A stretch of 64,000 nucleotides of DNA from Selenomonas sputigena (GTDB taxonomy: Bacteria; Bacillota; Negativicutes; Selenomonadales; Selenomonadaceae): positions 1,862,051 through 1,926,050 of the forward strand of contig NZ_CP110383.1 in assembly GCF_026015965.1 (NCBI RefSeq), in the 5' to 3' direction. Under the pieces are notes generated by a model. The model saw nothing but the letters and a program-made list of their open reading frames with translations. It was not told the DNA's origin and did no database searches. Below, piece after piece: positions 20,313 through 20,598 of the stretch. A program made the translations under genes and the position numbers. Each line of letters begins with the position of its first letter. The first letter of the stretch is position 1.

Positions 20313-20341
20313 TTGAGTCCACAATCATCATGTGTTATACT
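20313..20341 (+). promoter_or_regulatory. Strong promoter of a small-peptide gene
   Basis: TTGAGT (20313-20318) and TATACT (20336-20341) are spaced 17 bases. A short dyad CATGT/ACATG (20329-20349) surrounds the -10 box. Transcription should begin near 20348. Confidence 0.75.
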
Positions 20342-20404
20342 TATACATGGTGCTACTTAAACGGTAGGCGGTCGATTCTTAGCCCCTGAGAGGGGGCGTT
20401 GCCC

Positions 20405-20473
20405 ATGACGATTAACGATTTAATCGCGTTGCTCTTGGTAACGCTTTTTATCCTCGTCGTTCTGAAGGCATAA
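20405..20473 (+). CDS. Candidate type I toxin: 22-aa hydrophobic peptide
   Basis: A 22-residue open frame starting MTINDLIALLL and ending LVVLKA, almost wholly hydrophobic after residue 5, so it should insert in the membrane. The ribosome site AGGGGG (20391-20396) is 8 bases before ATG. It is closed into a hairpin by CCCCT at 20383-20387 (loop GAG), a feature of tightly controlled toxins. A strong promoter and a perfect terminator flank it, and an opposing promoter faces it. The architecture resembles type I toxin-antitoxin loci. The peptide matches no family I can name with certainty. Confidence 0.6.
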   Translation: MTINDLIALLLVTLFILVVLKA

Positions 20474-20563
20474 GAAACCCCGCCTCCGGCAACCAATCGT
20501 AGGCGGGGTTTCTTAAACCAAACTTATCATTGGGGCTGACCGTTTACCGGTAGCACCTTTTCT
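20470..20563 (-). ncRNA. Candidate antisense RNA to the small-peptide gene
   Basis: Inferred transcript from the minus-strand promoter at 20570-20598, starting near 20563 and ending at the shared hairpin terminator. It would overlap the 3' end of the peptide mRNA. Its 5' region (minus strand, about 20558-20532) is similar in sequence to the peptide mRNA 5' end rather than complementary to it, except for a CGGTAG core. Existence and role are inferred from sequence only. Confidence 0.45.
20472..20514. terminator. Perfect 14-bp bidirectional terminator
   Basis: Arms 20472-20485 and 20501-20514 (AAGAAACCCCGCCT and its complement) enclose a 15-base loop. A/T flanks on both sides allow use by both converging transcripts. 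The first arm overlaps the peptide's stop codon. Confidence 0.9.
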
Positions 20564-20569
20564 ATGCTC

Positions 20570-20598
20570 ATTATACGACACAATGCGTCATTCGTCAA
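20570..20598 (-). promoter_or_regulatory. Near-consensus minus-strand promoter facing the peptide gene
   Basis: On the minus strand TTGACG (20593-20598) and a perfect TATAAT (20570-20575) are spaced 17 bases. Only the shared terminator lies ahead before the flavin/ferredoxin gene, so a short antisense RNA is the likely product. Confidence 0.78.

What the first reader, a model, noticed from the sequence alone, without database searches (positions are those of the whole stretch)
20313..20598. Second candidate type I toxin-antitoxin locus with a different repeat logic
A 22-aa hydrophobic peptide has its ribosome site closed in a CCCCT-GAG-AGGGG hairpin, a strong promoter (TTGAGT-17-TATACT), a shared 14-bp terminator and an opposing near-consensus promoter (TTGACG-17-TATAAT). 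Unlike the other locus, the flanking similar blocks (about 20350-20386 and 20532-20558, GGTGCTAC...AAACGGT...AGCCCC) are inverted, so the two RNAs share 5' sequence rather than pair. This may mean a fold-back or shared-protein mechanism.
Basis: partly seen in the sequence, partly recalled or inferred. Interest (0 to 1): 0.65.

Follow-up and report, generated by a model that had tools for sequence, protein, structure and literature searches.

The report
Closed-loop toxin-like mRNA with antisense partner
This spot is one of seven copies in its genome of a tiny membrane-peptide gene with an opposing antisense RNA, and the puzzling inverted repeat is best explained as the two ends of the peptide's messenger RNA pairing with each other, a design shared by many relatives.

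Summary
In detail: a 22-aa hydrophobic ORF, a ribosome-site hairpin, a strong inner hairpin, two convergent promoters and an inverted block pair are present. It is one of 7 paralogues; a covariance model finds relatives in 169 of 300 class genomes, own included. The ORF evolves as coding sequence. The inverted blocks are best read as two arms of a long-range stem closing the 5' and 3' ends of the sense mRNA. They co-vary locus by locus within genomes (cognate -34.7 vs permuted -31.8 kcal/mol, 0 of 2000), also in 29 loci from plain BLAST (0 of 5000). Mismatches mostly keep G-U pairs in sense RNA (175 vs 41). A T-tract follows the 3' arm but not the outside of the 5' arm. The antisense resembles the mRNA 5' end because it copies the complement of the 3' arm. 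Antisense 5' end pairing with the ribosome site is not cognate-specific. No Rfam, Pfam, NCBIfam or PHROG match for the window's locus or peptide. Toxicity and transcripts untested. Verdict: new variant of type I toxin-antitoxin architecture; fold-back supported, shared-protein reading not.

The parts
20313..20341 (+). sense promoter TTGAGT-17-TATACT (extended -10)
20349..20356 (+). closing stem 5' arm, segment 1 (GGTGCTAC; predicted sense start at or near 20349)
20362..20374 (+). closing stem 5' arm, segment 2 (CGGTAGGCGGTCG)
20381..20386 (+). anti-SD AGCCCC: pairs with the SD in the 5' hairpin; alternative partner is GGGGCT at 20532-20537 (segment 3)
20382..20397 (+). 5' hairpin that sequesters the Shine-Dalgarno (GCCCCT-GAGA-GGGGGC)
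20405..20473 (+). 22-aa hydrophobic peptide ORF (stop included)
20471..20515 (.). inner hairpin T1: antisense terminator, possibly a second sense terminator; loop carries CCAA (antisense UUGG, YUNR type)
20532..20557 (+). closing stem 3' arm in the sense RNA; its complement is the 5' region of the antisense RNA
20558..20564 (+). T2: conserved T-tract directly after the 3' arm, proposed sense 3' end
20470..20563 (-). predicted antisense RNA (ends inferred from -10 spacing and T1)
20570..20598 (-). antisense promoter TTGACG-17-TATAAT

Best explanation
A chromosomal type I toxin-antitoxin-like module. The sense promoter makes a ~215-nt mRNA for a 22-aa membrane peptide. About 21 of its first 26 nt pair with the last 21 nt before a T-tract, closing the mRNA 5'-3' and burying its 5' end; the Shine-Dalgarno is held separately in a local hairpin. 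The opposing promoter, closer to consensus, makes a ~95-nt antisense RNA that ends at the inner hairpin T1 and is fully complementary to the mRNA 3' region, including T1 and the 3' arm. It therefore repeats the mRNA's 5' sequence as a by-product. Inferred: recognition starts at the T1 loops (UUGG), the antisense captures the 3' arm, opens the closure, exposes the mRNA to decay (RNase III / 5' exonuclease) and leaves the anti-SD on the SD, so the peptide is silent; loss of the labile antisense leaves a stable mRNA for slow peptide synthesis. Supported by sequence and covariation: closing stem, coding ORF, two promoters, T-tracts. Supported in the 145-locus set only: SD hairpin covariation. Inferred: transcripts, RNA stabilities, order of events, toxicity.
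For: Cognate S5 x 3'-arm duplex energy beats within-genome permutation, 0 of 2000 (116 loci, 33 multi-copy genomes); each of three segments 0 of 5000; repeated on 29 loci from BLAST-fetched stretches, whole stem 0 of 5000. On the MAFFT alignment A2 (26 loci, not fitted to the structure) helix 2 has 97.3% of cells paired; for the whole structure 88.9% are paired against 34-53% when slid, and 60 cells are changed on both sides against 23 in shuffles (the structure came from one of the rows, which favours it over slid versions). S5/A5 differences keep sense-strand G-U pairs 175 times, antisense-strand 41; 47 genomes vs 3, 12 equal. T at positions 2-4 after the 3' arm in 87-90% of 111 loci, not outside the 5' arm. 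-10 to GGTGC is 6-7 nt on the sense side in 50 of 73 and 12-13 nt on the antisense side in 57 of 74, so the antisense probably starts ~6 nt earlier. RNAfold closes the ends (8 or more expected pairs) in 130 of 133 loci. ORF: 0 non-synonymous against 5-6 synonymous changes in P1-P3 pairs, pooled pN/pS 0.33 vs 0.90 and 2.58 out of frame. T1 loop CCAA/CCAG in 95 of 133, shuffled mean 25.
Against: No RNA or growth data. In the window's copy T1 is a very stable hairpin followed by TTTCTT and could end the sense RNA before the 3' arm; a simple terminator scan did not call T2 on the sense strand, and did call a hairpin-plus-T site inside the ORF (20426-20444). Predicted SD accessibility is the same with or without the 3' arm (0.348 vs 0.337), so folding energies do not show how closure would control translation. 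Most loci were found with model R1, which contains the closing stem, so that set leans towards pairing (one search is the check). Four BLAST-fetched loci (L018, L019, L023, L036) have the antisense block but no matching 5' block within 420 nt; they were left out of the tests, and may be decayed or orphan antisense genes. The antisense-strand version of the pairing is also cognate-specific (-26.1 vs -24.2, 0 of 2000), as any similarity of the two blocks implies; only its lower strength and the G-U bias choose the strand. The SD hairpin is not cognate-specific in the BLAST subset (2532 of 5000). The conserved A-run before GGTGC in the antisense could serve antisense initiation instead of being a sense T-tract.
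Confidence: 0.65

Rival explanations
1. par/Fst- or SprA1AS-like: both RNAs share terminator T1, and the antisense 5' region (AGCCCC, a copy of the anti-SD) pairs in trans with the Shine-Dalgarno GGGGC of the mRNA and blocks ribosomes; the inverted repeat exists to give the antisense an anti-SD.
For: AGCCCC is widely conserved in the antisense; the A5 x SD duplex is strong on average (-16 kcal/mol). Direct repeat GTAGGCGG 20364-20371 / 20499-20506; the antisense T1 loop x S5 test is weakly cognate-specific (25 of 2000). Antisense action through the 5' end is described for SprA1AS (PMC8167048, passages).
Against: A5 x SD shows no cognate preference (1807 of 2000 permutations as strong or stronger; 3609 of 5000; 1389 of 5000). 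It does not explain the T-tract after the 3' arm, the co-variation of the first 9 nt, or the G-U asymmetry. It could still act alongside, shared between paralogues.
Confidence: 0.15
2. A DNA- or RNA-binding protein recognises the same block at the start of both transcripts.
For: The blocks start close to both predicted transcription starts.
Against: Symmetric protein sites do not predict a sense-strand G-U bias, the T-tract on one side only or unequal spacing from the -10 boxes.
Confidence: 0.05
3. The blocks are a relic of an inverted promoter duplication kept alike by gene conversion.
For: Inverted arms ~180 bp apart can convert; arms are similar within a locus.
Against: Systematic differences (S GGCGG vs A5 RRCGG, extra bases before AGCCCC in S) persist across the class; conversion would not give the G-U asymmetry.
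Confidence: 0.04
4. Same RNA architecture, but the peptide is a regulatory small membrane protein rather than a toxin.
For: Seven chromosomal copies in one genome; no plasmid or phage record matched the window's DNA at E 1e-3; no toxin family profile matches the window's peptide.
Against: Peptide length, hydrophobicity and a guarded ribosome site are typical of type I toxins; some relatives outside the class encode Hol_Tox peptides.
Confidence: 0.2

Closest known systems
aapA/IsoA of Helicobacter pylori and hok/Sok (mRNA closed by a 5'-3' long-distance interaction)
   Same: Short toxic peptide, several chromosomal copies (aapA), stable primary mRNA closed 5'-3', additional SD hairpins, antisense RNA (PMC6733600 and PMC8167048, passages).
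   Different: In aapA the 3' end masks the SD itself and 3' processing activates; here the SD sits in its own hairpin and the 3' arm pairs with the 5' end and can pair with the anti-SD. The antisense here overlaps the mRNA 3' region. No profile links the peptides.
par of pAD1 (Fst/RNA I-RNA II)
   Same: Convergent promoters, inner hairpin, SD hairpin, buried mRNA 5' end, hydrophobic peptide (PMC7472228, passages).
   Different: par uses direct repeats DRa/DRb for trans pairing; here the main repeat is inverted and closes the mRNA. No PXXXG motif, no Pfam or NCBIfam hit.
bsrG/SR4, bsrE/SR5, txpA/RatA of Bacillus subtilis
   Same: Antisense overlaps the mRNA 3' end; SR4 changes structure at the ribosome site and recruits RNase III (PMC5848175 and PMC8167048, passages).
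   Different: Window peptide has no Hol_Tox or other toxin profile hit; a closing stem of this kind was not checked in these loci here.
Hol_Tox (PF16935) loci of other Bacillota classes
   Same: Two R1-found loci outside the class encode Hol_Tox peptides above the Pfam cut-off (L207, L209), as does the longer frame that I read from L208; in the outside-class set of 21 loci cognate closing pairing is -37.6 vs -27.0 kcal/mol.
   Different: R1 scores are weak there (39.5-42 bits), R1 itself rewards the stem, and homology of the RNA rather than convergence is unproven.

Membership tests
type I toxin-antitoxin (general) | short hydrophobic peptide under coding selection | tested here: met
type I toxin-antitoxin (general) | antisense RNA gene overlapping the toxin mRNA | tested here: met
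   conserved opposing promoter and T1 by sequence; transcript itself not testable
type I toxin-antitoxin (general) | peptide toxic, antisense neutralises | not testable with these tools
   needs expression experiments
par/Fst | Fst peptide with PXXXG motif and charged tail | tested here: not met
   no Pfam or NCBIfam hit; MTINDLIALLLVTLFILVVLKA has no PXXXG
par/Fst | direct repeats DRa/DRb read by both RNAs | tested here: inconclusive
   only a partial GTAGGCGG direct repeat; antisense T1 x S5 weakly cognate (25 of 2000)
par/Fst | SD in an intramolecular 5' stem-loop | tested here: met
   not cognate-specific in the 29-locus subset
par/Fst | bidirectional terminator shared by both RNAs | tested here: inconclusive
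   T-tract better on antisense side in 108 of 133; a second T-tract after the 3' arm
aapA/hok-type closed mRNA | 5'-3' long-distance interaction | tested here: met
   covariation, permutation and G-U asymmetry; not probed experimentally
aapA/hok-type closed mRNA | SD masked by the 3' end of the mRNA | tested here: not met
   SD pairs with the local anti-SD; accessibility 0.348 vs 0.337 with and without the 3' arm, 133 loci
aapA/hok-type closed mRNA | 3' processing switches the mRNA | not testable with these tools
   needs RNA mapping
Hol_Tox / TxpA-BsrG | PF16935 peptide profile | tested here: not met
   no hit for the window peptide or the other Negativicutes-type peptides scanned with it; hits above cut-off only in distant loci L207, L209 and L208's longer frame

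The most novel reading that the evidence does not exclude
The conserved unit is an RNA scaffold, not a peptide: a closed mRNA plus antisense, spread over Negativicutes and other Bacillota classes, that carries unrelated small membrane peptides (YDFL, NETN, GYT.GYN and Hol_Tox types). In it the anti-SD has two mutually exclusive partners, the SD and the 3' arm, so the antisense, by capturing the 3' arm, snaps the anti-SD onto the SD about 150 nt away and shuts translation without touching the ribosome site.
Probability: 0.3. Interest if true: 0.78.

Novelty: new variant of a known kind. Interest (0 to 1): 0.62.

Why it matters
It would add a common, multi-copy type I toxin-antitoxin-like family to a class (Negativicutes) for which the paper searches listed no description, and, as far as these searches show, a 5'-3' closed toxin mRNA outside the proteobacterial hok and aapA systems. 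Because the closing stem co-varies, two-arm swap mutants can test directly what mRNA closure does in type I systems. It also gives a covariance model for finding such genes, which are too short for ordinary annotation.

Tried and rejected
Antisense 5' end acting directly on the SD: rejected as main reason for the repeat, no cognate preference. Closing stem as an SD switch by folding energies alone: not supported on average; competition for the anti-SD is energetically possible (its '3' tail' count also includes the end of segment 2). T1 loops diversified for specificity between paralogues: not supported, loop identity 0.66 within (28 pairs) vs 0.70 between genomes (177 pairs). Antisense T1 loop pairing with the mRNA 5' hairpin: weak (25 of 2000). 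Known RNA family: nothing at gathering score in the window, 8 relatives or 10 more, mostly from other classes; the 11 sub-threshold hits judged chance. First anchored wobble count (70 vs 40 per locus) was mis-registered at some loci; replaced by the whole-arm alignment. First segment test had a wrong anchor in the antisense; redone. Other same-family member in the window: only 20349/20532 matched without error in a fuzzy scan.

Rows dropped. BLAST-fetched loci never given to the alignment: L018, L019, L023, L036 (antisense block, no 5' block), L026 (weak hit without the block) and duplicates of loci already used. Of 182 aligned matches, 145 entered the tests; 37 were dropped: 22 labelled outside class (one, L215, is in class and was left out by oversight), 7 partial, 4 duplicate or misaligned, 1 odd, 1 identical, 2 without a called ORF. 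Further skips: 12 (no T1 or SD pattern; 133 used), 0-7 in the segment tests, 7.

Full report
What is there. The window holds, at 20313-20598, a sense promoter, a conserved 5' block, a Shine-Dalgarno hairpin, a 22-codon hydrophobic ORF, a strong inner hairpin (T1) beginning at the stop codon, an inverted copy of the 5' block and an opposing promoter. Both strands fold much better than shuffles.

It is a family. BLAST in the own genome finds seven loci: the window's copy plus six others; two of them (P3 and P7) appear as two hits each because of an insert (aligned). Four carry MTINDLIALLLVTLFILVVLKA or a near-identical peptide, three MELYDFLSFVFLVTISIVALKAK-like peptides. BLAST finds matches in 18 of 60 genomes, own included. 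A covariance model (R1, built from 26 loci) matches 169 of 300 genomes of the class, own included, with filters that lose weak matches, and 50 of 398 drawn from the phylum. Of those 50, 8 belong to the class (own included) and 42 do not; 15 of the 42 reach 40 bits. An exact 17-mer of the antisense block occurs in 75 stretches of the named-genome collection; these include Selenomonas infelix, S. noxia, S. flueggei, Centipeda periodontii, Anaerovibrio and Schwartzia. Clostridia bins L271 and L233 hold four and three copies in tandem; a matching 5' arm (-45.6 to -50.1 kcal/mol) was found for three of four and three of three, while L284 and L216 showed none. The hits in other phyla were not examined. 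The window's DNA matched no plasmid or phage record at E 1e-3.

The ORF is a gene. Among P1-P3 every nucleotide difference in the ORF is synonymous (5-6 per pair, 0 non-synonymous); pooled pN/pS over 1374 pairs is 0.33 in frame, 0.90 and 2.58 in the other frames. No Pfam, NCBIfam or PHROG profile matches the window peptide.

What the inverted repeat is. The antisense 5' block (A5) is a compact version of the sense 5' block (S5): GGTGCTAC, then GGTA(RR)CGGTYA, then AGCCCC. The complement of A5 on the sense strand can therefore pair with S5 in three segments. Tests: (i) in 116 loci of 33 multi-copy genomes the cognate duplex is stronger (-34.7) than when partners are permuted within genomes (-31.8, sd 0.34; 0 of 2000). 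The mirror pairing on the antisense strand is also cognate-specific but weaker (-26.1 vs -24.2, 0 of 2000), so this test alone does not choose the strand. Each segment alone gives 0 of 5000 (z -8.1, -4.8, -4.1). (ii) Because R1 itself contains the stem, I repeated the test on 29 loci lying in BLAST-fetched stretches: whole stem 0 of 5000 within genomes (21 loci, 7 genomes), segments 101, 36 and 134 of 5000. Four further BLAST-fetched loci have the antisense block without any matching 5' block within 420 nt (L018, L019, L023, L036). They are outside these tests; I take them for decayed or orphan antisense genes, which is a guess. (iii) On the 26-sequence MAFFT alignment, helix 2 has 97.3% standard pairs, four of its pairs change on both sides, and sliding the whole structure by 1-3 columns drops pairing from 88.9% to 34-53% (the structure was taken from one row). 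(iv) S5/A5 differences are of the kind that keeps a G-U pair in the sense strand 175 times and in the antisense strand 41 times, two fixed positions excluded; 47 genomes lean to the sense side, 3 to the other, 12 equal (genomes are related, so the binomial p of 4e-11 is nominal). I would not expect this bias from a DNA site, a shared protein or gene conversion. (v) In the 101 of 145 loci where both block patterns were found, one A is present in both arms in 85, absent from both in 10 and absent from the antisense block only in 6; 6 of the 10 are near-identical loci from related genomes, so the events are few.

Where the sense RNA ends. Directly after the 3' arm lies a T-tract: T in 72, 90, 88 and 87% at positions 1-4 of 111 loci; outside the 5' arm the same positions are 66, 34, 38 and 39% (89 loci). 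The T1 T-tract is better on the antisense side in 108, equal in 15 and better on the sense side in 10 of 133 loci. The -10 to GGTGC distance is 6-7 nt in 50 of 73 sense promoters and 12-13 nt in 57 of 74 antisense promoters. The simplest reading is that the mRNA begins at GGTGC, ends in the T-tract and is closed by pairing of its ends, while the antisense starts about 6 nt before GGTGC and ends at T1. RNAfold forms the closure in 130 of 133 full-length RNAs. Against this, the window's own T1 could end part or all of the sense RNA, and the simple terminator scan did not call the T-tract site.

How it may work. The Shine-Dalgarno is in a local hairpin whose arms co-vary in the large set (0 of 5000), though not in the BLAST subset (2532 of 5000). 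Closure does not change predicted SD exposure (0.348 vs 0.337), so I take its first role to be hiding the 5' end, hence mRNA stability. The T1 loop carries CCAA or CCAG, giving the antisense a YUNR-type UUGG/CUGG, in 95 of 133 loci against 25 in shuffled loops; [quoted passage not shown] The antisense would pair at T1, spread into the 3' arm, open the closure and lead to decay, as RNase III does for bsrG and yonT; SR4 also reshapes the bsrG ribosome site (PMC5848175 passages). The anti-SD can pair with the SD or with GGGGCT of the 3' arm (segment 3 co-varies; 130 of 138 loci at -8 kcal/mol or better), which allows a switch, but folding energies do not decide it.

Against other readings. Direct pairing of the antisense 5' end with the SD, as described for SprA1AS, is energetically possible but shows no cognate preference in three tests. 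A protein or DNA site has no support here.

Beyond the class. In 21 loci from other classes, all found with R1, the closing pairing is also cognate (-37.6 vs -27.0; better than the row mean in 20, best in row in 10). Some of these peptides are Hol_Tox above the Pfam cut-off (L207, L209; the longer frame of L208). This suggests that the RNA scaffold is older or more mobile than the peptide, but scores are low there (39.5-42 bits).

Comparison. It works like closed-mRNA type I systems (hok, aapA; passages) built in the convergent layout of par or bsrG, but fails the peptide tests for Fst and Hol_Tox and the SD-masking test for aapA/hok. Paper searches listed no description in Negativicutes or Selenomonas (open-licence PubMed Central only, judged from listings).

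Organism.

Noticed in passing
L007 (copy P7) about 1710-1850; L003 (copy P3) about 1690-1810; G000:C1:2495899-2496199 and 2207363-2207951: P7 carries a dispersed ~120-bp repeat (35 matches in the genome including itself, some in tandem) inside the loop of its SD hairpin. P3 has an insert of like size and partial similarity that this search did not match. The hairpin arms are kept in both (GCCCCTG/CAGGGGC, GCCCCTTTC/GAAAGGGGGC). Sister genome G001 has inserts resembling P7's in three loci.
   Followed up: partly
L271 (4 copies, ~358 nt apart), L233 (3 copies, ~380 nt apart): Tandem arrays of the same closed-mRNA locus in uncultured Clostridia bins, peptides such as MTLSELLQFCLVIIGICNLFIQNKKK; one of the four copies in L271 lacks a matching 5' arm.
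   Followed up: partly
L018, L019, L023, L036: Antisense block but no matching sense 5' block within 420 nt: decayed loci or orphan antisense genes.
   Followed up: partly
window 20426-20444: Hairpin inside the ORF followed by TTTTTATCCT is called terminator-like; it might attenuate the sense RNA early.
   Followed up: no
L024, L025, L073, L204, L215: Relatives with a long, extra-structured 5' leader and a different peptide type (for example MTILDLLAVLGYTATIFALGYMLGYNANKQK in L025), same end blocks.
   Followed up: no
L004 T1 loop: In copy P4 the T1 loop looks like the reverse complement of the loop in P1-P3, as if the hairpin had flipped.
   Followed up: no
L072, L075, L202, L203: R1 matches outside the class with basic, poorly hydrophobic short peptides (for example MPVRLTFHIGRFTISIEIRLTHRNNRHYGQ in L072), function unclear.
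   Followed up: no
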